Positions 16,373-30,147 of a stretch of 64,000 nucleotides of DNA are shown one piece after another. A program made the position numbers and the translations under genes. Each line of letters starts with the position of its first letter. Position 1 is the first letter of the stretch. Source of the stretch: a virus; IMG/VR virus record IMGVR_UViG_3300042535_000023, positions 1-64,000 of that record; one strand, given 5' to 3'. The notes below the pieces were generated by a model. The model saw only the letters and a list, made by a program, of their open reading frames with translations, was not told the origin of the DNA and searched no databases.

Positions 16373-16885
16373 TTAATTCTCTAATTCATTTGTCTGTCTC
16401 GACACAATCTCCGCCATTACTAAATCACAAAGTTCACTTAATACTCCCATACCACTTATTGAACTTAAAACAAAAGAAGCATACTTCTTTATAACATCTA
16501 CACTATCCAATGGACAGATAGATAAAGGTATCATTTGAACACACTCTAAGTCTGAATAAGTGCTGCCTATAAATAGAACTTCGTCTGGTGTCACGCTGTA
16601 GTATTGTAATATCTGAACTATAACGTCCTTCTTTTTCTTCTGCGCCCAATAAAATGGGATACACTTTTTTCTGAATAAGTTGTAGGATATAGCGTTATCT
16701 GAAGACATAAAAACAAACTTAAACCCTTTCTTAAGCTCATTAATAGCCTCAAAATCCTTTAGATGATAAGTTTTAAAAGGAACATTCTGTAACTCATCAT
16801 AGTTTACTAAGCCTTCTGTTATTATACCATCAACTTCAGAAATAATCAACTTAATTTTCTTCATTTTCTCTAAAAACTCTTTCAT
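16373..16885 (-). CDS. KdsC-like HAD protein with altered catalytic site
   Basis: A 170-residue protein from ATG 16883-16885, preceded by AGAGGTGAATAGT; an upstream in-frame GTG overlaps the previous gene. It aligns with KdsC-type sugar-phosphate phosphatases, but motif I reads SEVDGIITEG where the family has D-x-D: the nucleophile Asp appears to be Glu. Motif IV reads FIGSTYSDLECV, with Ser where the first Asp is expected. Motif II (VFMSSD) and the motif III lysines (QKKKKD) remain. It may be inactive or have another role. It adjoins the sugar-nucleotide genes. Confidence 0.7.
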   Translation of the reverse strand: MKEFLEKMKKIKLIISEVDGIITEGLVNYDELQNVPFKTYHLKDFEAINELKKGFKFVFMSSDNAISYNLFRKKCIPFYWAQKKKKDVIVQILQYYSVTPDEVLFIGSTYSDLECVQMIPLSICPLDSVDVIKKYASFVLSSISGMGVLSELCDLVMAEIVSRQTNELEN

Positions 16886-16886
16886 A

Positions 16887-17699
16887 CTATTCACCTCTAA
16901 GTGTTGGCCCGTACTCCTTTAATTTCTCAAGTTGCTGTTTCAATGGTGGTATGTCTAACTTAGGAGCACTATAAATAGAAGATAAAGTCCTATCACATTT
17001 CACAATAGTTTTATATTCATTAACTACAACATCCAAACTAAAAACGTCTGAAATTAATTTTGTTAGTTCATATTTATTAAATGAATCTGGAGAATGGAGG
17101 TGCTTCACTCCTTCCCAATATAAATTTTCTTTTATTATTATATCACAAATCTTTGCAAATGTCAAGCAAGTTATACCATTCCAAAAATGATTTGTATATC
17201 CATTAACTGTTTTACCTTCATTACTTTTTACCCACTCAAGTAAAGATACTTTATTTCTAAGCTCCTCCCCTATAATAGATGTCCTTATGACGCAACAGTT
17301 ATCTGGCTCTCCTAAAGATTTTGTTCTTCCATAAATATCGATGGCATCATGCAAAGACTCTTCATTATATGCACCTTTAGCGCCCGAAAAAACACAGTCG
17401 GTAGTGACGTGAATGAATTTAGCCCCAACATGTTCACAATGGTTTGCTACCCTCCAAGGAAAAGCAGAGTTTGCTAAAATAAAATCTACTGGATTAATTT
17501 TATTTCTTTGTTTTATTACTCCTATACAGTTAATAACCACATCCCCTTTAACTATAGAAGTAAAACTATTACCTCGTACTTTGGTAGCATCTACCATCTT
17601 CCTTGTTACACCAACAACATCATATTTTTTTAAAGAATTTAGATATGTAAAAACATATCTCCCTAACATACCTGTGCTACCTAATACAAATATTCTCAT
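16887..17699 (-). CDS. RmlD-like NAD(P)-dependent sugar-nucleotide reductase
   Basis: A 270-residue short-chain dehydrogenase of the extended RmlD type. It starts with the Rossmann motif VLGSTGMLGRYVF, continues with TTDCVFSG and the catalytic pair YGRTK (Tyr-x-x-x-Lys). In related loci such reductases act on the 4-keto-6-deoxy product of the adjacent dehydratase to complete a UDP-6-deoxy-HexNAc. It overlaps the dehydratase gene by four bases, so the two are translationally coupled. Exact stereochemistry cannot be read from sequence. Confidence 0.82.
   Translation of the reverse strand: MRIFVLGSTGMLGRYVFTYLNSLKKYDVVGVTRKMVDATKVRGNSFTSIVKGDVVINCIGVIKQRNKINPVDFILANSAFPWRVANHCEHVGAKFIHVTTDCVFSGAKGAYNEESLHDAIDIYGRTKSLGEPDNCCVIRTSIIGEELRNKVSLLEWVKSNEGKTVNGYTNHFWNGITCLTFAKICDIIIKENLYWEGVKHLHSPDSFNKYELTKLISDVFSLDVVVNEYKTIVKCDRTLSSIYSAPKLDIPPLKQQLEKLKEYGPTLRGE
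17137..17165 (-). promoter_or_regulatory. Consensus sigma-70 promoter inside the RmlD-like gene
   Basis: Perfect TTGACA (17160-17165), 17-base spacer and perfect TATAAT (17137-17142) on the minus strand. It would transcribe the HAD gene, clamp loader and polymerase independently of the glycan cassette upstream. Confidence 0.75.
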
Positions 17700-18685
17700 A
17701 ATAAAAACCCTCCGTCTGACAGTAACTGCGCCAAAAATTCATAATCTTTTATATCATCTGAAGAAGAAAAGTCTTTAAAAGTTGTCTTAGTAAGACCTAC
17801 AACATGTTCGTAATCCCTATTAATATTCAACTCAGGAAGTATAACATAATAATCATCGTCAAAAATGTAGGTTCTTGGCGCCTCATGCTCTGATACCAAT
17901 ACCTCATCCATCTTTTCCCCCTCTCTTATACCTATTTCTTTTATAGATGTATTTTTATTTCCGTAGTGTTTTATTAAAACTTCAGCAAGAGTCTCTATAA
18001 AAAATGCTGGCATATTCATCACGTATGTTTCACCACCAACACTTTTTTCAGTGGCTTTAAAAAGTAAAGTAATAGCTTCAGGAAGAGTCAAAAAGAATCT
18101 GGTCATCTTTCCTGATGTAACAGTAATTTCATTAAACCTTTTTATCTGATCTATAAATAAAGGCACTACACTACCATTAGACCCCAGCACGTTACCACCA
18201 CGAATACAAACAAAATCGGTGTCGTCAGTTAAATTATTAGCCTGAATAACTATCTTCTCTCCTACAGCCTTAGTAAAACCATATAGATTGGTTGGAGCTA
18301 CCGCTTTGTCCGTACTAACATCAATAAACTTTTTAATCTTATGTCTAATAGCAGCATTAACCAGATTGGTGGTTCCTATTATATTAGTTTTAATGGCCTC
18401 TTGGGGTTGATTCTCACACACAGGGACATGTTTTAAGGCGGCCAAATGATATACATAATCTATACCACGTTCGAATACCCTCTCTACAGCATCGGCATCT
18501 CTAACATCACCTATAATAAACTCTATTCGTTTATCTTTGAACTTACGCTCCATAACTACTTGAGCAAGTTCTCCCCTTGAAAATATAATAATTTTCTTTG
18601 GGTCTTTTTCAAGTAACTGCTTGGTTAGTTCGTTTCCCCAGCTCCCAGACCCACCACTTAAAAGGATTACCCTATTTTTAAACAT
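17696..18685 (-). CDS. UDP-GlcNAc 4,6-dehydratase family protein (WbjB/CapE-like)
   Basis: A 329-residue extended short-chain dehydrogenase of the CapD/WbjB/FlaA1 group. I choose ATG 18683-18685 because TTAGGAGAAATAATA precedes it; the longer in-frame start lies inside the upstream gene. Motifs: LSGGSGSWGNELTKQLL (NAD binding), IIGDVRD, HLAALKHVPVCE, DVSTDKAVAPTNLYGFTK with Tyr-x-x-x-Lys, then GGNVLGSNGSVVPLF and MTRFFLTL. It should convert UDP-GlcNAc to a 4-keto-6-deoxy sugar, possibly with C5 epimerisation. With the reductase (16887) and the WbjD-like 2-epimerase (23904) it would make a UDP-2-acetamido-2,6-dideoxy-L-hexose. Confidence 0.88.
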   Translation of the reverse strand: MFKNRVILLSGGSGSWGNELTKQLLEKDPKKIIIFSRGELAQVVMERKFKDKRIEFIIGDVRDADAVERVFERGIDYVYHLAALKHVPVCENQPQEAIKTNIIGTTNLVNAAIRHKIKKFIDVSTDKAVAPTNLYGFTKAVGEKIVIQANNLTDDTDFVCIRGGNVLGSNGSVVPLFIDQIKRFNEITVTSGKMTRFFLTLPEAITLLFKATEKSVGGETYVMNMPAFFIETLAEVLIKHYGNKNTSIKEIGIREGEKMDEVLVSEHEAPRTYIFDDDYYVILPELNINRDYEHVVGLTKTTFKDFSSSDDIKDYEFLAQLLSDGGFLL

Positions 18686-18696
18686 TATTATTTCTC

Positions 18697-19326
18697 CTAA
18701 TTTAATTTCCATAGGGACATTTGTTTATTATGCCCAGCATCATAATATCTCCATACATCTTCGTCATGTACTTCTAATGGCGCGCCAAGATTAAAAGGCT
18801 CTATCTCCAAATTAATATGCTTATAACCAGCTTCGACTGCTAATTCTTGTTTAGTTAACTCCCTGTTGACTTTTAACCAATTATGCTCGGTAGCTAGTAG
18901 GTATTTAGAACCACTTGCATAAAAATTCTTTAGGGCGCTTGAAACAAAAGAGTTAGGTAAATGAAAAAGACAATCCCTACATATAATTAAGTCTGTTTTT
19001 GGTAGCAATTCATTAACCATATCCAACTCAACGAAAGATATATTAGGATAAGTATCTAAATTTCTTTTTATAGCCAAATCATTTATATCATACCCTGTAT
19101 AAACTACATTTGTCAAATCCACAAGGTGCATCCAATTCTCAAACAACCCACAAGGGCAATCACTGATAGATTTTATGCCATATTTTTTAATTATACTATT
19201 TATAAACTCTATAGTTCCTGCCTGTTTAACTTGCTCAGGTTCGCTTCCAGGACCACAAGAACATCTACCATTACTCACCTCAAGATTGTAATGATATTTA
19301 AAAGTTTCTTTATTTTTTATACCCAT
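18697..19326 (-). CDS. Class I methyltransferase-like protein
   Basis: A 209-residue protein with a degenerate SAM-binding core: ISDCPCGLFENW occupies the motif I position (usually D-x-G-x-G), followed by VYTGYDINDLAI (motif II, acidic Asp) and DLIICRDCLFHLPNS (motif IV region). These elements are in the right order and spacing for a Rossmann methyltransferase. Loss of the Gly-rich loop makes activity uncertain. The start overlaps the upstream stop (TAATG). In the glycan cassette a sugar O-methyl group is the likely product. Confidence 0.68.
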   Translation of the reverse strand: MGIKNKETFKYHYNLEVSNGRCSCGPGSEPEQVKQAGTIEFINSIIKKYGIKSISDCPCGLFENWMHLVDLTNVVYTGYDINDLAIKRNLDTYPNISFVELDMVNELLPKTDLIICRDCLFHLPNSFVSSALKNFYASGSKYLLATEHNWLKVNRELTKQELAVEAGYKHINLEIEPFNLGAPLEVHDEDVWRYYDAGHNKQMSLWKLN

Positions 19327-19895
19327 TATAACACCAATTCATTTAAAATTTGCTCAATAGCATAGGTCCTTTGCTCTGCCACGCATTCATAAAAACCCTT
19401 TTTATTGATCTCTTCTAATTTCTGAATAAGGTATTTCTCCACACGATCACTAAGTGCTTGACAAGAATCAGTCATATGTTGGGACCTATCATTAACACGG
19501 AAGTCTTCACGCTTAATAGTCTCTATAGAAAGTCTATCCATCATTTCCCCAATACTGTAGACTACATCGTCGCTGACCCAAGATATTGCTTCTGTAGGTT
19601 CTTTAACAGACTTAACCGTAGCAATATATTTATTAATATGAGCTTTAGACGCAACACGATATTCCCCTACTGACCTGGCAACCCACTCTAAATCTGCTAT
19701 TAATTTATTATCTACAGTGTCTTTTTTACGCTCAGCTATCACAAGTGCATTCGCTTTATAGCAACGAAAATTAGCGTCAGCAAGAATCTCTACAAACTCC
19801 ATAATTCTTTGGGTCTCTTCAGCTGAAAAATGGTTGTTAAAAATACTTTCTACGTGTTCAAAAAATGGTTTAAAATCTATAGTTTCTAATATCAT
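19326..19895 (-). CDS. Glycan-cluster protein of unknown function
   Basis: A 189-residue helical protein. A motif SIGEMMDRLSIETIKRED (about residues 113-130) resembles the I-G-x-x-x-D-R-L-S-I-x-x-x-K signature of small uncharacterised proteins found in polysaccharide and LPS gene clusters. No catalytic residues can be named. AAGGAGAGA precedes the start and overlaps the natural end of the frameshifted methyltransferase upstream. Confidence 0.62.
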   Translation of the reverse strand: MILETIDFKPFFEHVESIFNNHFSAEETQRIMEFVEILADANFRCYKANALVIAERKKDTVDNKLIADLEWVARSVGEYRVASKAHINKYIATVKSVKEPTEAISWVSDDVVYSIGEMMDRLSIETIKREDFRVNDRSQHMTDSCQALSDRVEKYLIQKLEEINKKGFYECVAEQRTYAIEQILNELVL

Positions 19896-19897
19896 AC

Positions 19898-20018
19898 TTA
19901 TCTCTCCTTTATAGCTAAAAATGCGGGACCAAATATAAATATTTCGTAGCCCCTTTCTTTATAAAAATCAGGCCAAAGACTAATCAAATGTTTTTGGTGA
20001 ACATTGCCAGTTTTTTTT
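19898..20018 (-). other. Frameshifted 3' end of the methyltransferase gene
   Basis: The methyltransferase frame runs into TAG at 19980 shortly after an eight-A run (20011-20018, T on the plus strand). Removing one A gives an open frame to TAA 19898-19900, with a continuation GNVHQKHLISLWPDFYKERG and a final strand ending FLAIKER. That is the expected C-terminal helix-strand of such enzymes, and it ends exactly before the next ribosome binding site. Whether this is a sequencing error, a true mutation or slippage cannot be told here. Confidence 0.75.
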
Positions 20019-20465
20019 CATACAGGAATCATTACCACTTTCTCCTATAGGACCACCAATTATTGCGTACTTACTAAATGAATTTTCTATAAGTTCAAAA
20101 ACAATATCGTGAGCCTCTTGTGTTAAATGCTCTAACATATGATGACATAAAACAACATCATACTTCTTTTCTGGCTTAAAGTCAAGTATATTCATACATA
20201 AATACTCACCTTCAGGCCCATTATTTTTTCTCCAGTCAACATCTTTTTCAAATATATCTATACCTGTTATAGCTTTACCATTAAAAACATTAAATAAAAT
20301 ATCATAATTGTGAAAATTATCTATAGGCTGTCCATCAAAAGAACTACTTCCTAAATCCAAAACTGTAGTTATATTAGAAGAACTTATTTTATCTTTTAAT
20401 GTCTTTATCACTTGTTTAATTGGCCAGGTGTTATCTTTTGGTGCTTCAACTTTCTTTCTCCTCAT
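19980..20465 (-). CDS. SAM-dependent methyltransferase, frameshifted near the C-terminus
   Basis: As read, 161 residues; with the frameshift at 20011-20018 corrected it would be 188 and end at 19898. Motif I is TVLDLGSSSFDG, motif II AITGIDIFEKDV, and motif IV YDVVLCHHMLEHLTQEAHD, the pattern of small-molecule class I methyltransferases. The last residues in the current frame (NWQCSPKTFD) do not fit the fold, whereas the alternative frame supplies the missing C-terminal helix and strand. It belongs to the glycan cassette and probably methylates a sugar or sugar nucleotide. Confidence 0.78.
   Translation of the reverse strand: MRRKKVEAPKDNTWPIKQVIKTLKDKISSSNITTVLDLGSSSFDGQPIDNFHNYDILFNVFNGKAITGIDIFEKDVDWRKNNGPEGEYLCMNILDFKPEKKYDVVLCHHMLEHLTQEAHDIVFELIENSFSKYAIIGGPIGESGNDSCMKKNWQCSPKTFD
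20157..20185 (-). promoter_or_regulatory. Possible promoter inside the frameshifted methyltransferase gene
   Basis: TTGACT (20180-20185), 17-base spacer, TATGAT (20157-20162) on the minus strand. Each box differs from consensus by one base, so this is weaker support than for the other internal promoters. Confidence 0.4.
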
Positions 20466-20474
20466 AAAAATCTC

Positions 20475-21230
20475 CTATTCTTGCGCCATATTTTTAGCAT
20501 CTTCTGGTCTGCTACCACTTCTGCGCTCTACTGCCTCATGATGATATACTATAGAGGATCTACTCATGGTAAAATGGGCCCCTGCTCTACTACAGCGACC
20601 AAAGAATCGTGCGTCAGGAGTATCCCCACCTCTGAATATCAGTTCCCAAGGACCAGCTATTTCCCAATATTTTTTTGGAATAAGATAGGGCATAGTATTA
20701 GTGGCCTTCCATCCTCCACGCTCTTCTTCAGAAACTAATCTATCCTCAAATATCCTATCATACATTTCAAGGAACCCAACTATATTAAATTTTCCATATT
20801 CAGGTATACCAAAATCGGCAGTATCAATATTTGGTCCTCTAATGGGGGAGATGTGTGCGGAATTAACTATATCATTTTCATTAGCGTACTTTACAAGATT
20901 CAATAACCAATCCTTACCGAAATACATATCAGTATTAACTAAACCACAGTAATTATTTAGTTTAAACCCATAATCAAAACCACAATTCATCATGCCCCTT
21001 AGATTAGGCACGTAAGGAACAGCGTGATTTGTTTTATACTCAACGATATGTACATTACTATGCTTAGTCTTTAAATCAATTAAATAATCAGAAACCTCTT
21101 TTGTTGGTCCCCAAGTTACAACAATATAGTCAAAATTATCATAACCAGAATTAATAAGAATAGCATCTGTCGAAAAACGTAACATCTCAAATGCTGTTGA
21201 AACACAATTAAAAATAGACACTCTTTCCAT
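20475..21230 (-). CDS. GT-A glycosyltransferase
   Basis: A 251-residue glycosyltransferase-like protein. FDYIVVTWGPTKEVSDYL and a Rossmann-like strand pattern in the first 100 residues lead to YCGLVNTDMYFGKDWL, where N-T-D occupies the D-x-D metal and nucleotide-sugar site. A later segment (NTMPYLIPKKYWEIAGPW) resembles the acceptor-side motif of family 2 enzymes. Donor and acceptor are not predictable. It is transcribed with methyltransferases on either side. Confidence 0.75.
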   Translation of the reverse strand: MERVSIFNCVSTAFEMLRFSTDAILINSGYDNFDYIVVTWGPTKEVSDYLIDLKTKHSNVHIVEYKTNHAVPYVPNLRGMMNCGFDYGFKLNNYCGLVNTDMYFGKDWLLNLVKYANENDIVNSAHISPIRGPNIDTADFGIPEYGKFNIVGFLEMYDRIFEDRLVSEEERGGWKATNTMPYLIPKKYWEIAGPWELIFRGGDTPDARFFGRCSRAGAHFTMSRSSIVYHHEAVERRSGSRPEDAKNMAQE

Positions 21231-21241
21231 AATTAGCTCCT

Positions 21242-21859
21242 TTAATACATATTTTTAAATAAATCTTGTTGAGGGTTAATAAAAGTAGTGATTTCTTTTA
21301 TTTTTTGGGCTACAGCCCACATAACTATGCTAGGCTGAGTAGGACTAAAAACTGAAGGTATTGATACTTCTTCTCCTGAAAGTCCGCTAACTTTAAAGTA
21401 TAACACTTCAAAACCATTACTACTAAGGGCGACTTTAATTACCTCAGGACTAAAGGCGTAAAAACCATGCTGATATAGACCATTAGCTACGGTATGCAAC
21501 ATATAAAAACCGCCTAGTTTTATCATACTAAAACTTGTTGCTAAAACCTGTTTAACATCGAACACGTGTTCTATTGTACCTATATCAATAACTGCATGAT
21601 ATTTATTAACATGCTCTATAGGTGCTGGATTATTAAGATCAAAATTATAATTAGCAGACTTATCGAATAAATCTAGAGTATAAGCCTCTATCTCTTTCTT
21701 CTTTCTAAACCAATCAGCAAAATCATATACCCCTTTATACCTATCTGGCATTTTTTGTTCGGCTACATTTTTATGAACACCATATATTAATACAGGGCCC
21801 TCAGTAATGTAATTAAACATCTCATCGTAATACTTAAAATAGTCTGGGCTCATTGTCAT
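21242..21859 (-). CDS. Methyltransferase-like protein of glycan cassette
   Basis: A 205-residue protein. The second half fits a SAM methyltransferase: YHAVIDIGTIEHVFDVKQVL (motif IV and following helix), LGGFYMLHTVANG and GFYAFSPEVI. The N-terminal half has LIYGVHKN and YTLDLFD in place of the normal motif I region, so SAM binding is uncertain. Similar proteins with the D-x-G-T-x-E-H-V-F-D pattern occur in surface glycan clusters. The ribosome binding site is weak and the gene probably depends on coupling with the sulfotransferase upstream. Confidence 0.65.
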   Translation of the reverse strand: MTMSPDYFKYYDEMFNYITEGPVLIYGVHKNVAEQKMPDRYKGVYDFADWFRKKKEIEAYTLDLFDKSANYNFDLNNPAPIEHVNKYHAVIDIGTIEHVFDVKQVLATSFSMIKLGGFYMLHTVANGLYQHGFYAFSPEVIKVALSSNGFEVLYFKVSGLSGEEVSIPSVFSPTQPSIVMWAVAQKIKEITTFINPQQDLFKNMY

Positions 21860-21862
21860 TTT

Positions 21863-22531
21863 TTATATACCATAACCTAAAATTTTAATATAATTTTCTA
21901 ACTCTGGGGTAAGTACTTCTTTAACTCTTTCAATATGTTCTTCTTTTTTCCAATTATTTATAGAGTTTTTATCTATAGGTCTAGGTGAATTTAACGACTG
22001 ATTTTTTTTCAATTTTGCTTGAGGTAAATTATAAAAATTATTAAAAGTGTCGTTAAAAGGGCAGCCTATAAAATCAGAAACTCTACTTAATTCCGCTCTA
22101 GGATCTTCTACTAAATTCTCATATCTAACAAATATTACATTAGTATTATCTAAGTTATCAACATAGCATTGACTACCAGTAATGATTCTTTCAGGCTCCA
22201 CCCAGTAAATACTTGGATTAAATTTGTGCCTCGATACTAAAACATCTAAAGGATGCCTTACCATAAATATAATTTTATACCCGTATTGTTCTGTTAGAAG
22301 TCTACAAGTGTACTCTGGTGTAAATATGTCTGAATAGCCTATAGGTTGCTTTATAACAAAATATTTATAAGTATTCGGGACAACAACCCTACCAGGCCTT
22401 TCTAAAGGGTGGCGCTCCTCTTTAGAAAAAACAAAACAATCGTCAAAATAAGTCATAAGTAAACACATCATAGTTGTGCCTGCCCTAGGAAACCCACTTA
22501 TAAATACACCAGGTTTTCTAACTCTACCCAT
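21863..22531 (-). CDS. P-loop sulfotransferase of glycan cassette
   Basis: A 222-residue sulfotransferase. The PAPS 5'-phosphosulfate loop is FISGFPRAGTTMM (residues 9-21), and the 3'-phosphate segment IIFMVRHPLDVLVSRHKF is clear. VIFVRYENLVEDPRAELSRV is the usual strand-helix after it. It should add sulfate to a hydroxyl or amine, most likely on the glycan built by the neighbouring transferases. Methyltransferase genes flank it on both sides. Confidence 0.88.
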   Translation of the reverse strand: MGRVRKPGVFISGFPRAGTTMMCLLMTYFDDCFVFSKEERHPLERPGRVVVPNTYKYFVIKQPIGYSDIFTPEYTCRLLTEQYGYKIIFMVRHPLDVLVSRHKFNPSIYWVEPERIITGSQCYVDNLDNTNVIFVRYENLVEDPRAELSRVSDFIGCPFNDTFNNFYNLPQAKLKKNQSLNSPRPIDKNSINNWKKEEHIERVKEVLTPELENYIKILGYGI

Positions 22532-22535
22532 TAAA

Positions 22536-23063
22536 CTAGGCCCCCACCCACTCGTAACAACCTATAGCTACTAAACCATTATCATTAACACTTACATTTA
22601 ACAGAGTAAATCCAAGTTCGTATCTAATTTCTTTATCGCTCCAATGGTAATGATGTGTCTCAAATGGATTACCTATAGCATTACCGTCTTGAATACAAAC
22701 AGTTACAGGTATAGTTAAGTATATTCTACTCACATTGGTTTTCAGTTTATTTAAAAATTCTAAGGCGTCTTCTCTGGATAAATGTTCCAATACATCACCT
22801 AGAACCGCAACTGTATATTTTTTATTAAATTCAAATTGCCTCAAGTCTATGTTATATAATTCATTATAAAATTGAGGTAAATTATACTTAATTATATAAG
22901 GTTTCCAAGCCTCTATACCTTCTATCCAAGATACCCTACCTTTAAGTAATTTTCCCCATTTGCCCTCACCAATGCCTATATCTAAAACAACGTTGTTTGG
23001 ATTAGAAATAATCTTTCTAACTATGATATTGGTACCTAAATCTGATTGCTGTGATTGTGGCAT
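22536..23063 (-). CDS. Class I SAM-dependent methyltransferase
   Basis: A 175-residue methyltransferase with an intact SAM loop, VVLDIGIGEGKWGKLL (about residues 20-35), an acidic strand 2 (WIEGIEAW) and motif IV VAVLGDVLEHLSREDALEF, followed by a strand with RIYLTIPV. The C-terminal part has several His/Tyr residues (HHYHW) that may contact substrate. It overlaps the upstream glycosyltransferase by 28 bases. A small-molecule or sugar substrate is likely. Confidence 0.82.
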   Translation of the reverse strand: MPQSQQSDLGTNIIVRKIISNPNNVVLDIGIGEGKWGKLLKGRVSWIEGIEAWKPYIIKYNLPQFYNELYNIDLRQFEFNKKYTVAVLGDVLEHLSREDALEFLNKLKTNVSRIYLTIPVTVCIQDGNAIGNPFETHHYHWSDKEIRYELGFTLLNVSVNDNGLVAIGCYEWVGA

Positions 23064-23902
23064 AAAACCTCCCTCATTTTAATAGTGATAGTATTATCGA
23101 ATATATGTACATTTTCTTCATTAAGCATATTATTAAACTTCTGTGTCAATGGCGCTCCACCGTACCAATGTATTCCTGCTGAATCTTTATGTAATTTATC
23201 AGCATGATTTCCTATATATAACATATTTATTCCAATTTGCCAAGGAAAATTTATCAATGGAAAAACTATAGCGTCATGGAGCTTTGCTACAACTAGATCT
23301 TTAAAATTATCTTTAACCTCAGATATATTTTTTTCCTCTATACTCATAGTACCAAAACATTCATATACCTTAGGATCATAGTTTGTGAGCGCTTTATTAT
23401 AAACTTTAGTGAAAAATGCGTTGGCTCCCGCACTATACATAAAGGATACTGGAATGTAATCTTTCTTTGGGTAACCGTCAAAACAAATTAACCCTACATC
23501 AGCGCCTTCAAAAACAGACTCGTCTATAGACTTTGTAAATAAAATATCCATATCAGCTACTATACCACCACAGGTACTTAGAAGCTTCCAATTTAATAAA
23601 TCCTTTATATGAACGTCGGACATAGAATTAACTATATCTCTTGGTAGATCTAACATGTTGGGGTTAAACTCTATAATAGTTATAGGAAGTTTCTGTACCA
23701 TCTCAGAATAATCTGGACCACTATACTCTGTCTTATCTTGTTTCTCTACTATTACTTCATCTTGTACTCTATCTGATTGTAGGCAGTTCTTTATTAAATA
23801 TACTCCCCACCCTTTATTTAGCGCGCAAAAAGAAAAAAGGGTCATGTAGCGCATATAAGACATAGTCTCATTACCCCAATAAAAATAAATATCTTTTTTC
23901 AT
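23036..23902 (-). CDS. Glycosyltransferase with DXD sugar-binding motif
   Basis: A 288-residue protein of the capsular/DXD glycosyltransferase type. It opens with IYFYWGNETMSYMRYMTLFS and has the signature DLLNWKLLSTCGGIVADMD, in which D-M-D is the metal and nucleotide-sugar site. Related enzymes (family 32-like) add hexoses to cell-surface polymers. A conserved GGA-type loop (HWYGGAPLTQKF) is near the C-terminus. The cytoplasmic location is inferred from the absence of a membrane segment. Confidence 0.82.
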   Translation of the reverse strand: MKKDIYFYWGNETMSYMRYMTLFSFCALNKGWGVYLIKNCLQSDRVQDEVIVEKQDKTEYSGPDYSEMVQKLPITIIEFNPNMLDLPRDIVNSMSDVHIKDLLNWKLLSTCGGIVADMDILFTKSIDESVFEGADVGLICFDGYPKKDYIPVSFMYSAGANAFFTKVYNKALTNYDPKVYECFGTMSIEEKNISEVKDNFKDLVVAKLHDAIVFPLINFPWQIGINMLYIGNHADKLHKDSAGIHWYGGAPLTQKFNNMLNEENVHIFDNTITIKMREVLCHNHSNQI

Positions 23903-23903
23903 A

Positions 23904-24974
23904 TTACTTCCCTAATAAAATATTAATAACTATATCAGATACATTTTCCACCAAATAATCTGCTGGAGGTATCCATTTATTATCCCTCTTCTGAATAAGA
24001 TTAAATGATTCTAACATATTTTCATACTTTGTACCAGTTAAAATTGATGAGCCACACTCAATTAGTTCTTGTCTCTCTGTTGATTCACGAATTATTAATG
24101 AAGGGATACCAAATAAACAGGAGATTTCTGGATTAGAGCCTGAATCACTTACTAATAAATCAGCCGTTTTACTTAATTTATTAAACTCAAAAAACCCTAG
24201 TGAACTACTCACTATAACATTTTTTGGATGGAATATCAAATCATATTTTGACATTTTATCTTTTGTTCTTGGATGTAGCGACACCACTACTTTATATTGC
24301 TCTGACATCTTGTTTACTAACCTAACAATATTAGTTAAACTTTCTCTATTATCCACATTTTCCGCGCGGTGAAAAGTTACTAATACAAATGGAACAGCAT
24401 TTAGTCCTAAATCATTAACAACATTACTTGAGTCTATTTCATCTTTCCAATAGTTTAATACCTCATAAATAGGATTACCGGTTTTAAATATATAATTCTT
24501 ACAGTAACCTTCATTTATAAGGTTTTGTTTACTATTCTCTGTGTAAGGAAGATTGTAGGTAGATAACATATCGATAATTTTACGATTAGTTTCTTCAGGA
24601 ACTCTAGGATCAAAAGCGCGACTCCCAGCCTCCATATGGATTATTGGTATTTTATATCTATTAGCAACTAAAGCCAACAATCCTGAGTTGGTGTCCCCCA
24701 AAATCAATATTTTATCGGGTTTTTCTTTTAGAAGTATACGTTCAAAATCAAATATAGCTGCACCTAAAAATTCTCCAAAAGAACCACACGGTCCAGGCAA
24801 AGTATAGTCTGGTTCTCGTATTTTTAAATCTTTAAAAAACCTACCACTTAAATCGTAATCAAAATTTTGGTTGGTATATAGCAGGAAGTGCTGTACTAAT
24901 TCATCTAACTTTTTAATTATCAAATGTAGGCGAATCAGCTCCGGGCGGGTTCCAACGACGGTTAAAATCTTCAT
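23904..24974 (-). CDS. Non-hydrolysing UDP-HexNAc 2-epimerase (WbjD/CapG-like)
   Basis: A 356-residue epimerase. Family motifs include VVGTRPELIRL (residues 6-16), GDTNSGLLA, HMEAGSRAFDPRVPEETNRK, YTENSKQNLINEG, VTFHRAENVDN and SDSGSNPEISCLFGIP. The segment FDPRVPEE..R, together with KTGNP..EVL, is closer to the WbjD/CapG enzymes of UDP-L-6-deoxy-HexNAc pathways than to WecB, which makes UDP-ManNAc. It would catalyse the last C2 epimerisation after the dehydratase (17696) and reductase (16887). The assignment to the exact sugar is inference. Confidence 0.87.
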   Translation of the reverse strand: MKILTVVGTRPELIRLHLIIKKLDELVQHFLLYTNQNFDYDLSGRFFKDLKIREPDYTLPGPCGSFGEFLGAAIFDFERILLKEKPDKILILGDTNSGLLALVANRYKIPIIHMEAGSRAFDPRVPEETNRKIIDMLSTYNLPYTENSKQNLINEGYCKNYIFKTGNPIYEVLNYWKDEIDSSNVVNDLGLNAVPFVLVTFHRAENVDNRESLTNIVRLVNKMSEQYKVVVSLHPRTKDKMSKYDLIFHPKNVIVSSSLGFFEFNKLSKTADLLVSDSGSNPEISCLFGIPSLIIRESTERQELIECGSSILTGTKYENMLESFNLIQKRDNKWIPPADYLVENVSDIVINILLGK

Positions 24975-24976
24975 TT

Positions 24977-25801
24977 TTAACTCCTTATAAGTCTATTAGT
25001 GATCACTTTATAATCTGGAGATGCCGACTTAATTTCATATAAACTCTTATTTAACTGCTCTTTGGCTCTAAGATTAGGAATTTGTTCTAAGGACGAGGTG
25101 TGATATTGATGCAAACAAAACGGTGACGCAACCATCTCTATATCCATATTCTTTTTAACTATACGCATAGCAAAATCAGTATCATCGTAAGCAAAACCGT
25201 TAGCATACTCCTCATCGAAACCACCCAAATCATATAGGTCCTCTTTAGTTATAGCTGTAAGGAAATTAAAAAAGCATTTTCTATATTCTGGATGAGAAAA
25301 CCAGGACTCAAATCTACTACCTTCATCGCAACTACGAGGTAAAAAGCCACCTAAAGCGCTGCTCACGTTTGTTACTAACTCTTCTATTGAAGTATTTAGA
25401 TTGATTTGTCGAAGTTTGTTGGTCGAAGCTTGTCCAAGCGAGTAGCACGCAAAAACCAGATACTTATTAAGAGTTAGTTTATCATTTACATAACTAAGTA
25501 CGTCACCCATATTAACACACTCCGGGTTTTGTATAATTATATAATCACCTTTGGCCTGGCTAAAACCAATATTAAAAGGTACACAAGGATTAGTCCAAGT
25601 TTTTTCTTTAGGATTTATTCTTATCAATTTGATAAAGGGATATAGTGACGCAAAATCTTCTATCCGATGCTCATCATCACTGGCATCATCCACTAGCACA
25701 TACTCAAAGTCTTTGAAATTAGAAGCTTTTATAGACATGATGGAACGCCACAGCAAGTCTTTCCTATTATAATAGGCTGATACTATAGATATTTTAGGCA
25801 T
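24977..25801 (-). CDS. Family 2 glycosyltransferase
   Basis: A 274-residue GT-A enzyme. The family start ISIVSAYYNRKDLLWRSIMS leads to FEYVLVDDASDDEHRI (nucleotide binding), then YIIIQNPECVN at the usual D-x-D position and DLGGFDEEYANGFAYDDTDF, the canonical acceptor-site motif with E/DD. Donor sugar unknown. It follows a GT13-like enzyme and precedes the 2-epimerase gene. Confidence 0.88.
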   Translation of the reverse strand: MPKISIVSAYYNRKDLLWRSIMSIKASNFKDFEYVLVDDASDDEHRIEDFASLYPFIKLIRINPKEKTWTNPCVPFNIGFSQAKGDYIIIQNPECVNMGDVLSYVNDKLTLNKYLVFACYSLGQASTNKLRQINLNTSIEELVTNVSSALGGFLPRSCDEGSRFESWFSHPEYRKCFFNFLTAITKEDLYDLGGFDEEYANGFAYDDTDFAMRIVKKNMDIEMVASPFCLHQYHTSSLEQIPNLRAKEQLNKSLYEIKSASPDYKVITNRLIRS

Positions 25802-25810
25802 ATAATTCCT

Positions 25811-26689
25811 TTATTCTAATACCAAAGTTCCATCCCAGGCATCGATCTCTGGAATAAATTCTGTGTAGTCAGTGTATGTACCATCTAACGCAGATAAAAG
25901 TTCAGCGTTAAACATATTCTCTTCTAAAAATTTAATCCTATCTTCAAAGGTAGATAAATTTTCAGGGAATTTACCGCCGTGCCTATTGAAGCCAAAAAAT
26001 CCTATATGTAATAGTCTATTACACACAGAGGAGTAACCCCTTACCCCATTTTTATATGAAGTATAATCAACCAAACGATTCATCAGCCCGTCCCAATCAA
26101 GATGAGTAAAAGCACCTCTCTCTTTATTATATTTAGCATTGGGATTATTACTGTTCATTAAATTAATTTTATGAATAGTAGCCGTCCAATTTTTATAATA
26201 ATCAACAGTAGCGTGTTCTAACATGTAATTATTAAAAAAGTTTTTATTTATCATTACTCCTGGGCCATTTGAATAATCGGTAGTTCTAAGTATAGAAGGG
26301 CTTCCCGTATTATTGTAACCCCAACTTGTTATTACAGAGTAATTACCATTAGTTAATTTATGAGCTTTATTTACAAATTCAAAATAAGTTTTATGTAAAA
26401 TAAGGTCGTCTTCCATATTTATAACGTACTCTATATCCTGACTAAAGGCCTGCTTTAAAGCTTCCATAATATTAGCACATACCCCATATCTAACTTTACG
26501 TTGCATTACTATCTTTTTAAAAGGATAGGCATCCACTATTTCAAGACATTTTGGATCTGCTCCTCCCTCAATTGCAAATAACGTTGTATAGTCGTCATCA
26601 GGAAAATACTCCCTTGCTATAGTCTCATATTTAATTGAAAGTTGCAACATCTCAGGTCTATTAAACAAAGGCCTTAAAATTATATTCAT
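25811..26689 (-). CDS. GT13/GNT-I-like glycosyltransferase
   Basis: A 292-residue GT-A protein. It begins IILRPLFNRPEMLQLSI and has a metal motif INMEDDLILHKTYFEFV in which E-D-D is the signature of N-acetylglucosaminyltransferase I-like enzymes, followed by ITSWGYN. Such enzymes are best known from eukaryotic N-glycan synthesis, but relatives occur in bacteria and viruses. The likely reaction is transfer of a HexNAc. Length is close to the catalytic domain alone, without a membrane anchor. Confidence 0.75.
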   Translation of the reverse strand: MNIILRPLFNRPEMLQLSIKYETIAREYFPDDDYTTLFAIEGGADPKCLEIVDAYPFKKIVMQRKVRYGVCANIMEALKQAFSQDIEYVINMEDDLILHKTYFEFVNKAHKLTNGNYSVITSWGYNNTGSPSILRTTDYSNGPGVMINKNFFNNYMLEHATVDYYKNWTATIHKINLMNSNNPNAKYNKERGAFTHLDWDGLMNRLVDYTSYKNGVRGYSSVCNRLLHIGFFGFNRHGGKFPENLSTFEDRIKFLEENMFNAELLSALDGTYTDYTEFIPEIDAWDGTLVLE

Positions 26690-26698
26690 TCTGTCTCC

Positions 26699-27817
26699 TT
26701 ATAATACTTCTTCTATCTCAGAAATTAATCTTTTGCCTATGGCTTCGTAAGAGAAATTTTCTCTAATATATGATTGGAGTTTTAATCCTTTTTCTTTTGC
26801 CTGGGCTTGATTTTCAAATACTTCTCTCATAAGTCTGGAGGCATGCTCCTGATCAGCATTGGCCCACATTTGATCTCCACGGTGCCAAGGACTGTAGGGC
26901 ATACCAAAAGCAAACTCTTTAGTAAAATCAACAAGGTAGGAATTATCTGGTTTTGCATACTCTGTGCTACCGCCCCAACCTGTTAAAATAATAGGTTTGC
27001 CAAAAGATCCAGCTGTCAGAGGACCGATACCAACCCCCTCACCTTTATCAAGGGATATATAACAATCAAATCTTGAATGTAATGCTTTTACTTGGTTATC
27101 AGATAGCATGTCCAATATTAAGTATATTGGTGGATAATAATCTAAAGGAGAAAAATTCTTCATTCTTTTTATAGTGTCTCTAATTACATTCTTCTCTACA
27201 TCACTAAAATCATTTCTATATGTCTTAAGGACTAGGGCTACATTATCTTCTTTTTTAAATGTTGCCCAATAAGTTTTAAGAAGACCGCCAGGATTCTTTT
27301 TTTCAACCCACTGAAAGATGTCTCCAAAAACAAAAGTATCATCTGATAACCCTGATATTTTATAGTTATCTATATTTTTAGGAACATCATCAGCGCAATG
27401 TGAACAAACTCCTACTGGTATTGTCACACCACTATCTTCAAATACTTTCTTTCCCCACTCTGATCCAGTGATAACTTTGTCCAACGTATTAATAAAACCT
27501 GGCCAAGTTGGGAATAAGCGGTCATTCTCCCACACTGTAAAAGCAATAGTTTTTTCAGTCTTTTTTTGATAGATAGGAAAATGTTCTGGGGTAAGTTGAA
27601 TAAAATGGGCATCATAATCATCAAATCTGTTAACTAAACTCCTAAGCAACTCCCCATCTTCCCCTATACTAGGTTTATTCTTTTCAAATGAAATTGGATT
27701 TAATGTTAATTCTACTCCCATTTTATGCATAGCTAACGCATTTTGACGCGAGGCTTTTCCGTAGCCACTTGGGTCAAAAAAAGGAGCAGTAAATTTTAAT
27801 CTTTTAAGCTTTCCCAT
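26699..27817 (-). CDS. GT-B glycosyltransferase (family 4-like)
   Basis: A 372-residue GT-B enzyme. The N-terminal domain has FFDPSGYGKASRQNALAMHK, typical of the glycine-rich entry to the first Rossmann fold. The C-terminal domain has FVFGDIFQWVEKKNPGGLL, DCYISLDKGEGVGIGPL and GSFGKPIILTGWGGSTEY, with the E-x-G-x-G-x donor site. The C-terminal helix resembles other family 4 enzymes. It is similar in build to the transferase at 28845-30122. Donor unknown. Confidence 0.85.
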   Translation of the reverse strand: MGKLKRLKFTAPFFDPSGYGKASRQNALAMHKMGVELTLNPISFEKNKPSIGEDGELLRSLVNRFDDYDAHFIQLTPEHFPIYQKKTEKTIAFTVWENDRLFPTWPGFINTLDKVITGSEWGKKVFEDSGVTIPVGVCSHCADDVPKNIDNYKISGLSDDTFVFGDIFQWVEKKNPGGLLKTYWATFKKEDNVALVLKTYRNDFSDVEKNVIRDTIKRMKNFSPLDYYPPIYLILDMLSDNQVKALHSRFDCYISLDKGEGVGIGPLTAGSFGKPIILTGWGGSTEYAKPDNSYLVDFTKEFAFGMPYSPWHRGDQMWANADQEHASRLMREVFENQAQAKEKGLKLQSYIRENFSYEAIGKRLISEIEEVL

Positions 27818-27827
27818 CTATAACTCC

Positions 27828-28721
27828 TTAATTAGTAAACTCTTTTCCACAATTAGAACAAATCCATTTACCTTCATACATAATAGCATTTCCACCACAT
27901 TTATCACAATAACGTGAATAATCATAATTAACCATAGGTTTGTCTCCTTCTGATTTTAGAGCTTCCGCTTTTACTTTCTTTCGCCCGCAGCAACGGCTTT
28001 TTGCTTCTGGACAGTATCCCAACATCTCACATCTACTATCAACCTTATTAAATACACAAGGAAGCTTTAGTCTACAAATACGTAACATCTCTTTGGCTAA
28101 ATTTCTAATTTCCCATTGGGCGGCCGTGCAAAGTCTCAGGCTAAGAAAATGTGTCAAACTAACACAATTCATGGTGATAACTATACGAGTAGTAACTCCA
28201 TTAGGCATAACATAACGAGCGTCTTCGCTAGGGATTCCTAAGGCTTTAAGCTGATTATATGCTTTTTGAATTTCTTCTAAGATATTCACATAAATATTGA
28301 GTGCTTTAGCATCTGCGTTGCCCTCATTCTTTTCATTATCAACTATGCTTGGCGGAAAAACGTAATCGCTAAGCATAAACTCCCCAGCATTGCTCACATA
28401 ACGTTGTGACTGCTGAGAGTAACTCGCTATACGGTGACGCACTAACTGATGGCTAAGGGCACGAGAGATGCCATCTACAGCAAATGTAAACTTAACATGT
28501 TCAAATACTGAGGTGTGTCCTGATGTATGGAGATGCTTTAAAAGATTGTCCATCTCTTTATCAGTAGAGGGCTCATTCTTTTCGAGGTCCATAACTGTTA
28601 CTAAACCAGTTTCATCCTCCTGCCACATATCACCTGTCCAACCATCTGCGTAACACTGTCTAGCCGACGCAAAGATTAACTCCTTAGCATTGGGTGTCAT
28701 TGATAATAATTTAACTCTCAT
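27828..28721 (-). CDS. thyX: Flavin-dependent thymidylate synthase with C-terminal zinc ribbon
   Basis: A 297-residue ThyX that makes dTMP from dUMP with methylene-THF and FAD. The ThyX motif R-H-R-x7-S is present (QLVRHRIASYSQQSQRYVS, Arg95-Arg97). EDARYVMPNGVTT and ITMNCVSLTHFLSLR follow. Beyond the usual end, a linker and a four-cysteine ribbon (Cys272, 275, 288, 291) are fused. This extension is unusual. It follows the tRNA and probably starts from the promoters at 28885-28913 and 29031-29059. A strong AAGGAGGATT ribosome binding site is present. Confidence 0.94.
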   Translation of the reverse strand: MRVKLLSMTPNAKELIFASARQCYADGWTGDMWQEDETGLVTVMDLEKNEPSTDKEMDNLLKHLHTSGHTSVFEHVKFTFAVDGISRALSHQLVRHRIASYSQQSQRYVSNAGEFMLSDYVFPPSIVDNEKNEGNADAKALNIYVNILEEIQKAYNQLKALGIPSEDARYVMPNGVTTRIVITMNCVSLTHFLSLRLCTAAQWEIRNLAKEMLRICRLKLPCVFNKVDSRCEMLGYCPEAKSRCCGRKKVKAEALKSEGDKPMVNYDYSRYCDKCGGNAIMYEGKWICSNCGKEFTN

Positions 28722-28762
28722 ATGTAATCCTCCTTAATTCAGATTAATGTTCTACTACACTT

Positions 28763-28834
28763 TAGCGGAGGGTAGATTCGAACTACCGTGCTCAAGTTTA
28801 TGGGACTTGGGAGAAACCCCTTCTCTACTCCGCA
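28763..28834 (-). tRNA. tRNA with CAU anticodon (Met-type)
   Basis: A 72-base cloverleaf fits fully: acceptor stem with six pairs, D stem GAGA/TCTC, anticodon stem CAAGT/ACTTG, five-base variable loop and T stem GGTAG/CTACC with loop TTCGAAT. The anticodon loop is CCCATAA, so the anticodon is CAU, for methionine (or, if lysidine-modified, isoleucine). The first acceptor pair is T1-T72 mismatched, D-stem pair 11-24 is A-T, and position 33 is C instead of the near-universal U. No CCA is encoded. The first two features are hallmarks of bacterial initiator tRNAs, but the three G-C pairs of the initiator anticodon stem are missing. Confidence 0.88.
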
Positions 28835-28844
28835 ACAAAACTTT

Positions 28845-30122
28845 TTAGAAGGTTTCAGCTTCGATTACTTTGTTTGTGTTTTCTATTGTAACATTTTTCT
28901 TTGGGTTTGTCAAGTTTAAATAAGCATTGTCAAAAGCATTGACCCAGGCTTGTCCAATCTTGCCCTGCCAATCAAGTTCACTACGAACCCAGTTATAAGC
29001 CGTCTCTGCTTTTTTGGCTGCTTCCTCTCTATTATAATAGACGTGAAGCATTTTGTCAACCATATCCTCAACATCAACAAGAGGGCGACGCACTTCATTA
29101 TCATTTGGAAGAACGGTCCAAAGGCTTGGATTTGTTCCACTTTTTACAAGATAGCCTTTGTCTTCAGTAATGAACTCAGTCATAGCTGTATTATTTGGCA
29201 TAATAACTGGTGTCTTTGTGGCCATGGATTCTACCCACTGAAGACCAAAACCCTCACCAAGATTTGTGCTAACAGAAACGTCAGCACAGTTATAGAGTGC
29301 ATTAACGATATTTTTCGGATACCCAGAATTAACTGAAAAATTCTCTGGGAAAATAACATCCTCAGAAGTGCTTAGCCCAAATGAACGGCATACTTCTAAA
29401 AGATTCCAGCCCTGATCCTTCTGTGCCATATGTAAGTAAAGAATTGAGTCTTTAACTTGCTTCCGAAACTCTACAAATGCTTGAATAGTTCGTGGAATAT
29501 CCTTACGTTGCTGATTACGATTAAGGTTCATAACAATAAACTTGTCCGCATGCTTACCAAAATACTGCTTCTTAAATGGCATTAACTTCTCTTTAGGAAT
29601 AACATTATAGTCATTAAGATTAACACCATGAGGAATTACTTTAATATCTTCAAGAGATGGTAGGGCTTTGATAGCTTCAGCCTTACCATGCTCAGTATAA
29701 GCAAAAATTTCATCAGCATAACTAATGTTAACTGCCCACTCCGGCTTTAAAATAGAGTCCACTGGAAAATAAACTATTGATCGGAACGGTTTCTTCATAT
29801 TCTGTTTTAAATGTGGCATTAGTTCTGGAAGGAAGTCCATAATAAAAGTGTCCTGCAGAAGAAATAAAATATCAAAATCCATTCTTGGGGTCATTTGGCA
29901 GAATTTTCTCCTACCATAAGGATCCCTCTCTCCATTTGTACCAGCCGGGAAAATCTTATATGGAAATTCATGAGGGTCGCCCCAGTAATTAATACCAAAA
30001 TTACTAATCTCATAACGACCTGTCCTGTGCAAAGCCTCGAAAATATTACGAGAAACTGTTGAAAACCCTGTTGCGCTTGTTGGGCTGTCCATATAGGCCC
30101 ATACTTTAATTTTTTTGTCCAT
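28845..30122 (-). CDS. GT-B glycosyltransferase (family 4-like)
   Basis: A 425-residue GT-B enzyme. I choose ATG 30120-30122 because GGAG abuts the upstream ATG too closely. N-terminal domain: YMDSPTSATGFSTVSRNIFE. C-terminal domain: VIPHGVNLNDYNVI, FIVMNLNRNQQRKDIPRTIQ, DVSVSTNLGEGFGLQWVESM and ATKTPVIMPNNTAMTE, the nucleotide-sugar site of family 4. It is the first gene of the glycan cassette in transcription order. Two consensus promoters lie in its last 240 bases and point to the tRNA and thyX. Confidence 0.88.
   Translation of the reverse strand: MDKKIKVWAYMDSPTSATGFSTVSRNIFEALHRTGRYEISNFGINYWGDPHEFPYKIFPAGTNGERDPYGRRKFCQMTPRMDFDILFLLQDTFIMDFLPELMPHLKQNMKKPFRSIVYFPVDSILKPEWAVNISYADEIFAYTEHGKAEAIKALPSLEDIKVIPHGVNLNDYNVIPKEKLMPFKKQYFGKHADKFIVMNLNRNQQRKDIPRTIQAFVEFRKQVKDSILYLHMAQKDQGWNLLEVCRSFGLSTSEDVIFPENFSVNSGYPKNIVNALYNCADVSVSTNLGEGFGLQWVESMATKTPVIMPNNTAMTEFITEDKGYLVKSGTNPSLWTVLPNDNEVRRPLVDVEDMVDKMLHVYYNREEAAKKAETAYNWVRSELDWQGKIGQAWVNAFDNAYLNLTNPKKNVTIENTNKVIEAETF
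28885..28913 (-). promoter_or_regulatory. Sigma-70-type promoter before tRNA and thyX
   Basis: TTGACA (28908-28913), 17-base spacer, TACAAT (28885-28890) on the minus strand, 51 bases before the tRNA 5' end and inside the 3' end of the glycosyltransferase gene. Confidence 0.75.
29031..29059 (-). promoter_or_regulatory. Consensus sigma-70 promoter in the 3' part of the glycosyltransferase
   Basis: Perfect TTGACA (29054-29059), 17-base spacer and perfect TATAAT (29031-29036) on the minus strand, about 146 bases upstream of the promoter at 28885-28913. Confidence 0.72.
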
Positions 30123-30147
30123 AAACATCTCCTTTAATTAATTTTAA

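What the first reader, a model, noticed from the sequence alone, without database searches (positions are those of the whole stretch)
16373..30122. Phage-borne cassette for an unusual sulfated, methylated glycan with its own UDP-6-deoxy-HexNAc pathway
Within 14 kb there are at least six glycosyltransferases (20475, 23036, 24977, 25811, 26699, 28845), one sulfotransferase (21863), four methyltransferase-like genes and three sugar-nucleotide genes. The dehydratase (17696-18685), RmlD-like reductase (16887-17699) and 2-epimerase (23904-24974) match in kind and order of reaction the WbjB/WbjC/WbjD (CapE/CapF/CapG) and WbvB/WbvR/WbvD routes from UDP-GlcNAc to a UDP-2-acetamido-2,6-dideoxy-L-hexose. 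The epimerase motif FDPRVPEE and the KTGNP..EVL segment favour this over plain UDP-ManNAc synthesis. A phage that builds, transfers, methylates and sulfates its own amino sugar could remodel host surface polysaccharide to exclude rivals, or glycosylate its own virion. I know of no described phage with this full set; that is a statement of limited knowledge.
Basis: partly seen in the sequence, partly recalled or inferred. Interest (0 to 1): 0.88.

Follow-up and report, generated by a model that had tools for sequence, protein, structure and literature searches.

The report
Phage operon building a rare-sugar glycan
An uncultivated bacterial virus carries a complete set of genes to make its own rare sugar (a 6-deoxy-L-amino sugar, probably N-acetyl-L-quinovosamine), string it into a methylated and sulfated sugar chain, and most likely hang that chain on its own particle, and some twenty related phage contigs carry shuffled versions of the same set.

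Summary
Genes at 16373-30128 include a UDP-GlcNAc 4,6-dehydratase, an RmlD-fold reductase, a CapG-type 2-epimerase, a sulfotransferase, about six glycosyltransferases (five with tool support) and about four methyltransferases (three with tool support). ThyX, a tRNA-Met and probably the HAD gene are not part of the glycan set.

The pathway call needs sharpening. The dehydratase is FlaA1/Mg534-type (YxxxK), not WbjB/CapE-type (MxxxK). The reductase lacks the WbjC/CapF cupin domain but has a TDC motif whose Cys102 aligns with the catalytic Cys109 of GDP-fucose synthase. That predicts a C3-epimerase/C4-reductase, as in giant-virus Mg535. Most likely route: UDP-GlcNAc to UDP-L-RhaNAc to UDP-L-QuiNAc.

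About 20 IMG/VR contigs carry relatives. In phages sharing the window's flanks, six genes are constant and the rest vary, like serotypes. In three other phages the same genes sit between the major head protein and the head-tail connectors; in others, beside terminase. No cassette encodes a recognisable flippase, polymerase or priming transferase. I therefore favour virion glycosylation over host-surface remodelling. Phage glycan clusters and this giant-virus pathway are known separately; their combination in tailed phages appears new.

The parts
17696..18712 (-). UDP-GlcNAc 4,6-dehydratase/5-epimerase, FlaA1/Mg534-type (STDKAVAPTNLYGFTK); start probably 18685
   Evidence: PF02719 E=1e-95; PseB model 303 bits, FnlA 251, both under cut-off; profile best on FlaA1 2gn4 283 bits; YxxxK in nearly all relatives
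16887..17699 (-). RmlD-fold reductase with TDC motif; predicted C3-epimerase/C4-reductase
   Evidence: PF04321; Cys102 aligns with E. coli Fcl Cys109 where RmlD has Tyr; top viral fold match Fadolivirus reductase, TM 0.90, 40% id
23904..24974 (-). non-hydrolysing 2-epimerase, CapG/WbjD-type
   Evidence: 7ya2 CapG 302 bits against WecB 120 bits; wecB model just above cut-off; catalytic motifs invariant
21863..22531 (-). PAPS-type sulfotransferase
   Evidence: PF00685 E=6e-15; SGFPRAGTT loop kept in L024
28845..30128 (-). GT-B glycosyltransferase, constant in same-site cassettes
   Evidence: PF00534; phrog_2170 E=5e-52; 58-63% in L020/L024/L025
26699..27817 (-). GT-B glycosyltransferase, constant in same-site cassettes
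   Evidence: phrog_2170 E=4.5e-20; 47-48% in L020/L024/L025
25811..26689 (-). GT2-like glycosyltransferase (weak)
   Evidence: PF00535 E=1.4e-4, just under cut-off
24977..25801 (-). GT2 glycosyltransferase
   Evidence: PF00535 E=9e-12
23036..23902 (-). GT32-like glycosyltransferase with DxD (VADMDILF)
   Evidence: weak Pfam; profile matches a mannosyltransferase 9n3s E=7e-5
20475..21230 (-). putative GT2-like transferase
   Evidence: no library match; NTD..DWL pattern by eye; 68-75% in L024/L025/L026
18697..19326 (-). methyltransferase
   Evidence: phrog_3382 E=1e-37
19980..20465 (-). methyltransferase
   Evidence: PF08241 E=5e-6, above cut-off
21242..21859 (-). putative class I methyltransferase
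   Evidence: no library match; motif by eye; 65% in L024
22536..23063 (-). methyltransferase-like
   Evidence: PF13489 E=5e-5, under cut-off; 67% in L025
19326..19895 (-). conserved all-helical protein of unknown function, constant in same-site cassettes
   Evidence: 61-72% in most relatives, 44% in L026; weak DUF4254 in one member; AF2 pLDDT 83.5, no PDB fold match
16373..16894 (-). HAD-type hydrolase, probably flank rather than cassette
   Evidence: PF08282; kept beside DnaX/PolA in L011
27828..28721 (-). ThyX (nucleotide gene inside the cassette)
   Evidence: TIGR02170 E=4e-57
28762..28835 (-). tRNA-Met(CAT)
   Evidence: ARAGORN

Best explanation
A phage operon makes and uses its own rare amino sugar. 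Step 1 (inferred from family and active site): the dehydratase converts UDP-GlcNAc to a UDP-2-acetamido-2,6-dideoxy-4-keto-L-sugar with inversion at C5. Step 2 (inferred from the TDC motif): the reductase inverts C3 using Cys102 and reduces C4 with NADPH, giving UDP-L-RhaNAc. Step 3 (inferred from CapG-type similarity): the 2-epimerase converts part or all of it to UDP-L-QuiNAc. About six glycosyltransferases then build a short glycan in the cytoplasm; about four methyltransferases and one PAPS-dependent sulfotransferase cap it. The glycan is most likely put directly on phage structural proteins (virion glycosylation). In the sampled phages of the same genome type, the glycosyltransferase/methyltransferase content is swapped while six core genes stay, so particles of related phages would differ like serotypes.
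For: Families. 2-epimerase CapG-like, not WecB-like. Dehydratase catalytic STDK...YxxxK intact and invariant in close relatives. Reductase Cys102 aligned with Fcl Cys109; kept in nearly all relatives. Characterised precedent of the same trio with the same kinds and near-equal sizes (323/270/370 aa) in Megavirus chilensis, where Mg535 (270 aa, conserved Cys) does 3-epimerisation plus 4-reduction and the sugars are on the virion: PMC9614988, PMC10117803, PMC4691112. Co-occurrence of the trio in most relatives. Same-site cassettes with a constant six-gene core. No multi-span membrane protein in the cassette, with Wzx/Wzy/WcaJ detected by the same scan in E. coli K-12. Cassette between major head protein and connectors/tail genes in L028, L030, L031; beside terminase in L029 and L027 (by coordinates) and L034/L035. 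Inteins in dehydratase, reductase and a glycosyltransferase of relatives suggest well-conserved, important genes.
Against: No enzyme activity, product or virion chemistry was measured. In the window's own genome the cassette lies in the replication module, not beside virion genes, and its terminase and major capsid genes were not identified, so the acceptor is unknown. L028/L030/L031 share one arrangement and may be one evolutionary event. Glycosyltransferases without membrane anchors can still work on host lipid-linked intermediates and use host export. The stereochemistry of the C4 reduction cannot be read from sequence, so L-talo/L-Fuc products are not excluded. The Mantel test for co-inheritance was modest (D-R r=0.53, D-E r=0.52, R-E r=0.22, not significant), and different dehydratase types are paired with the same reductase/epimerase.
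Confidence: 0.55

Rival explanations
1. Host-surface remodelling: the phage makes the same sugar but delivers it through the host's lipid carrier and export system to change LPS/capsule and block rival phages or hide the infected cell.
For: Proposed for jumbo-cyanophage polysaccharide clusters (PMC7824862). Cassette lies in the replication module, compatible with early/middle expression. Serotype-like variation is typical of cell-surface antigens.
Against: No priming transferase, flippase, polymerase or ligase in the window cassette; none recognisable by membrane-span scan in the relatives. Same genes embedded in the head-to-tail module of other phages.
Confidence: 0.28
2. FucNAc branch: reduction at C4 goes to the L-talo form and the 2-epimerase makes UDP-L-FucNAc, as in WbjB/C/D and CapE/F/G. 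(This concerns the product only and can be true together with either delivery model.)
For: 2-epimerase is closest among solved structures to CapG, which makes UDP-L-FucNAc.
Against: Dehydratase is not the MxxxK type and the reductase has no cupin domain (270 aa). The giant-virus trio of the same sizes makes RhaNAc/QuiNAc (PMC9614988).
Confidence: 0.2
3. Recently captured host O-antigen genes without lasting function in the phage.
For: The trio also exists as an operon on Priestia megaterium plasmids.
Against: Closest relatives found are in viral contigs (68-75% for the dehydratase) against 49% for Priestia. Catalytic residues intact, conserved locus in several phages, composition like the phage.
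Confidence: 0.05
4. Sugars are used to modify phage DNA or a small molecule rather than a protein or lipid.
For: Phage glycosyltransferases are known for DNA bases (T-even phages; PMC9614988). DNA replication and ThyX genes are adjacent.
Against: Six or so different glycosyltransferases plus sulfotransferase fit an oligosaccharide. No base-hydroxylating gene was noticed, but this was not searched systematically.
Confidence: 0.07

Closest known systems
Megavirus chilensis Mg534/Mg535/Mg536 (UDP-L-RhaNAc to UDP-L-QuiNAc)
   Same: Same three enzyme kinds, near-equal sizes, YxxxK dehydratase, cysteine-bearing bifunctional reductase, viral genome; Moumouvirus australiensis also has a sulfotransferase next to the trio (PMC10117803, PMC9614988).
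   Different: Giant virus of amoebae; Mg534 only distantly similar (4tqg 189 bits to the phage profile); phage cassette has more glycosyltransferases and methyltransferases and belongs to a prokaryotic virus.
WbvB/WbvR/WbvD of Vibrio cholerae O37
   Same: Same reaction logic and an RmlD-like reductase (own knowledge; Mg536 is 50% identical to WbvD per PMC9614988).
   Different: Bacterial O-antigen locus; sequences not compared here.
WbjB/WbjC/WbjD and CapE/CapF/CapG
   Same: 2-epimerase is CapG-like; same substrate and same first chemistry.
   Different: Dehydratase MxxxK and CapF cupin domain are absent in the phage.
Polysaccharide-modification clusters of jumbo cyanophages (P-SSM2 and others)
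   Same: Phage-borne block of sugar-nucleotide enzymes plus variable glycosyltransferases and methyltransferases (PMC7824862).
   Different: Those are described with other sugar genes and read as host-surface systems; this one has a defined L-HexNAc route and a sulfotransferase, and relatives sit inside virion modules.
Glycosylated mycobacteriophage virions (Freeman et al. 2023, cited in PMC12691614)
   Same: Precedent that tailed-phage virions can carry glycans.
   Different: The paper itself was not held; no rare-sugar pathway known to me there.
Priestia megaterium plasmid operon (NZ_CP048885)
   Same: Adjacent 2-epimerase, dehydratase (49%), reductase (37%, TDC).
   Different: Bacterial plasmid, downstream of a giant carboxypeptidase-regulatory-like-domain protein; no variable glycosyltransferase block of this kind seen in the fetched stretch.

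Membership tests
WbjB/CapE dehydratase subfamily | MxxxK in place of YxxxK (PMC3699295, PMC5774825) | tested here: not met
   NLYGFTK; Tyr in the window protein and nearly all relatives; only L034/L035 has NAMGVSK
WbjB/CapE dehydratase subfamily | C-terminal 'latch' loop | not tested
   no structure of the dehydratase was predicted
[quoted passage not shown]
   D135 K136 Y144 K148 invariant in A3; FlaA1 best in profile search, but margins are small: 283 vs 271 (WbjB) vs 259 (CapE) bits
[quoted passage not shown]
   303 bits against cut-off 408; so not PseB proper
WbjC/CapF reductase | C-terminal cupin domain | tested here: not met
   270 aa, one RmlD domain only
Mg535-type bifunctional C3-epimerase/C4-reductase | catalytic Cys as in GDP-fucose synthase, plus YxxxK | tested here: met
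   Cys102 aligns with Fcl Cys109, RmlD has Tyr; YGRTK present
Mg535-type bifunctional C3-epimerase/C4-reductase | sequence similarity to Mg535 itself | not testable with these tools
   Mg535 not in the collections; nearest viral fold hit was Fadolivirus
CapG/WbjD/WbvD 2-epimerases | closer to CapG than to WecB/MnaA, catalytic D/E/H residues intact | tested here: met
   302 vs 120 bits; GDTNS, HMEAG, PEE, HRAEN motifs
O-antigen/capsule locus with own export | Wzx, Wzy, priming transferase, ligase or ABC exporter | tested here: not met
   no membrane spans in the cassette; positive controls detected
Phage polysaccharide-modification clusters | phage-borne sugar-nucleotide plus variable glycosyltransferase genes | tested here: met
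   phage genes around
PAPS-dependent sulfotransferases | Sulfotransfer_1 above cut-off with 5'-phosphosulfate loop | tested here: met
   55.7 vs 22 bits; SGFPRAGTT

The most novel reading that the evidence does not exclude
A widespread group of tailed phages coats its own particles with phage-synthesised L-RhaNAc/L-QuiNAc glycans that are methylated and sulfated, with a fixed core pathway and swappable glycosyltransferase genes giving virion 'serotypes': a prokaryotic-virus counterpart of the giant-virus glycan coat.
Probability: 0.42. Interest if true: 0.85.

Novelty: new variant of a known kind. Interest (0 to 1): 0.62.

Why it matters
If right, it gives a concrete chemical prediction (L-RhaNAc/L-QuiNAc, O-methyl, sulfate) for phage particles that can be tested by mass spectrometry, and turns the usual 'phage LPS gene' label into a testable choice between virion coating and host-surface change. 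It also suggests that rare-sugar pathways were taken up separately, or shared, by giant viruses and tailed phages, and that phages may vary their surface much as bacteria vary O-antigens.

Tried and rejected
1) WbjB/C/D filing: rejected on MxxxK and cupin tests. 2) Pseudaminic acid route (PseB best NCBIfam model): the window's cassette has no PseC-type aminotransferase among its annotated genes and the PseB score is under cut-off; rejected. 3) Plain UDP-ManNAc synthesis: 2-epimerase far closer to CapG than WecB; rejected. 4) Host identification: the genome-contig scan gave only two short, near-identical contigs binned to two different phyla (Parcubacteria, WOR-3), read as misbinned phage DNA; host remains unknown. 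5) 'Staphylococcus/Listeria phage' records with CapE/CapG-like hits look like host chromosome in phage deposits; not used as phage evidence. 6) Fold of the conserved 19326 protein: good model, no PDB match. 7) Promoter/terminator scan: counts at or below shuffled expectation; no conclusion. 8) PDB profile searches for 20475 and 21242: nothing. 9) Mantel co-inheritance: only modest.
Full report
What was checked. The window is part of an 82,191-base virus record. It encodes DnaB helicase, primase, UvsX, a polymerase clamp, DNA polymerase A, a DnaX-like clamp loader, ribonucleotide reductase, DNA ligase and tail assembly proteins, so it is a tailed-phage genome or fragment. All cassette genes are on the minus strand. 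From 16373 to 28721 they are nearly contiguous (gaps -28 to +84 bases); a 123-base gap with a tRNA-Met precedes the 28845 gene. GC content is like the rest of the window.

The three sugar-nucleotide genes. The dehydratase (17696-18712) belongs to Polysacc_synt_2. Profile searches put it nearly level between FlaA1 (283 bits), 6bwc (281), WbjB (271) and CapE (259), with FlaA1 first. The active site decides: WbjB and CapE are defined by MxxxK (PMC3699295, PMC5774825), whereas the phage enzyme and nearly all its relatives have YxxxK as in FlaA1. Megavirus Mg534 also has YxxxK (PMC9614988). FlaA1, CapE and Mg534 are described as dehydrating UDP-GlcNAc and inverting C5. The reductase (16887-17699) is a 270-residue RmlD fold without the CapF cupin domain. 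Its motif is TTDC, where RmlD has STDY. In an alignment with E. coli GDP-fucose synthase and RmlD, Cys102 falls on Fcl Cys109. A cysteine of GDP-fucose synthase is described as the residue for C3 epimerisation and as conserved in Mg535 (PMC9614988; that it is Cys109 is own knowledge). Nearly all reductases in the set keep it, including the Priestia plasmid and a 635-kb uncultured phage; L017 is the exception. The AlphaFold model (pLDDT 80.5, but below 50 at residues 103-109 next to the motif) matches RmlD structures and, among viral models, best a Fadolivirus reductase (TM 0.90, 40% identity). The 2-epimerase is clearly of CapG type.

Reading of the pathway. Together these give UDP-GlcNAc to UDP-4-keto-6-deoxy-L-sugar, to UDP-L-RhaNAc, to UDP-L-QuiNAc, as in Megavirus (Mg534/535 shown experimentally; Mg536 inferred from virion sugars; PMC9614988, PMC10117803). 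For the phage every step is inferred. The direction of C4 reduction is not readable from sequence, so the FucNAc branch is kept as a rival.

The other genes. The sulfotransferase is sound and is kept in L024. Five glycosyltransferases have tool support of varying strength; 20475 does not. Three methyltransferases have tool support, one of them weak; 21242 is by inspection. 19326-19895 is a conserved helical protein of unknown role.

Relatives. Scans with the dehydratase and the 2-epimerase gave about 20 distinct IMG/VR contigs, 20 to 340 kb. In contigs sharing the window's flanks (PDDEXK and the 28845 glycosyltransferase on one side, HAD-DnaX-PolA on the other) six genes are constant in the four compared: reductase, dehydratase, 2-epimerase, 19326, 26699 and 28845. 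The window shares 8 to 11 of its 17 cassette genes with each of the three others. L011 has HAD-DnaX-PolA, but other sugar genes beside it (UDP-sugar dehydrogenase with an intein, GDP-mannose-dehydratase-like, PfkB). Relatives pair the reductase and 2-epimerase with at least three dehydratase types, including a true MxxxK type in L034/L035, which is consistent with a shared chemical goal.

Virion or host surface. No cassette protein has a predicted membrane span, and no multi-span export protein was recognised in relatives, while the same scan detects Wzx, Wzy and WcaJ of E. coli K-12. The scan is a simple hydropathy filter, and a tail tape-measure protein is among its few multi-span hits. In L028, L030 and L031 the glycan genes lie between head genes (portal or head morphogenesis, major head protein) and connectors/major tail protein, with a tape measure seen in L030 and L031. 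In L029 and L027 a terminase lies close by (by coordinates), and L034/L035 lies between terminase and, in L035, a tail fibre. This arrangement favours expression with virion genes and hence virion glycosylation. It is indirect for the window's phage, whose cassette sits in the replication module.

Inteins. Relatives carry inteins in the reductase (at TTD|C), the dehydratase and the 26699-type glycosyltransferase. Inteins usually persist in conserved sites of important genes (own knowledge), so this is mild evidence that the cassette matters to these phages.

Novelty and verdict. Phage-borne polysaccharide clusters are known (PMC7824862) and this sugar route is known in giant viruses. I found no open-access description of the route in tailed phages, but the library is partial and several searches were narrow. 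I call it a new variant of a known kind.

Noticed in passing
L003/L025 reductase; L009/L010/L020/L021 dehydratase; L008/L019 and L016 26699-type GT; L005/L009 PolA; L011:3448-5367: Inteins or intein-like insertions in sugar-nucleotide and glycosyltransferase genes, unusual hosts for inteins; the PolA cases are inferred from split matches only.
   Followed up: partly
window 19326-19895: 189-aa all-helical protein, 61-72% conserved in most relatives' cassettes, weakly DUF4254-like, no fold match.
   Followed up: partly
L013, L014: Nearly the same cassette contig binned to Parcubacteria and to WOR-3 in one project, so probably misbinned phage DNA.
   Followed up: partly
L028, L030, L031: Glycan operon inserted between major head protein and head-tail connectors, with a sialyltransferase-like gene in L030.
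   Followed up: partly
L038 (LR745206, 634,780 b): Huge uncultured phage with reductase 45% and dehydratase 36% identical about 5 kb apart in one run of co-oriented genes.
   Followed up: partly
L037 (Priestia megaterium plasmid): The trio as an operon downstream of a giant carboxypeptidase-regulatory-like-domain protein gene.
   Followed up: no
window 49703-54856, 59883-63869, 41839-45288: Very large tail-region proteins with several concanavalin-like lectin, SPRY and F5/8 domains, possible sugar binders.
   Followed up: no
window 5248-6024: RlaP-type RNA repair nucleotidyltransferase.
   Followed up: no
window 27828-28835: ThyX and a tRNA-Met inside the glycan cassette.
   Followed up: no
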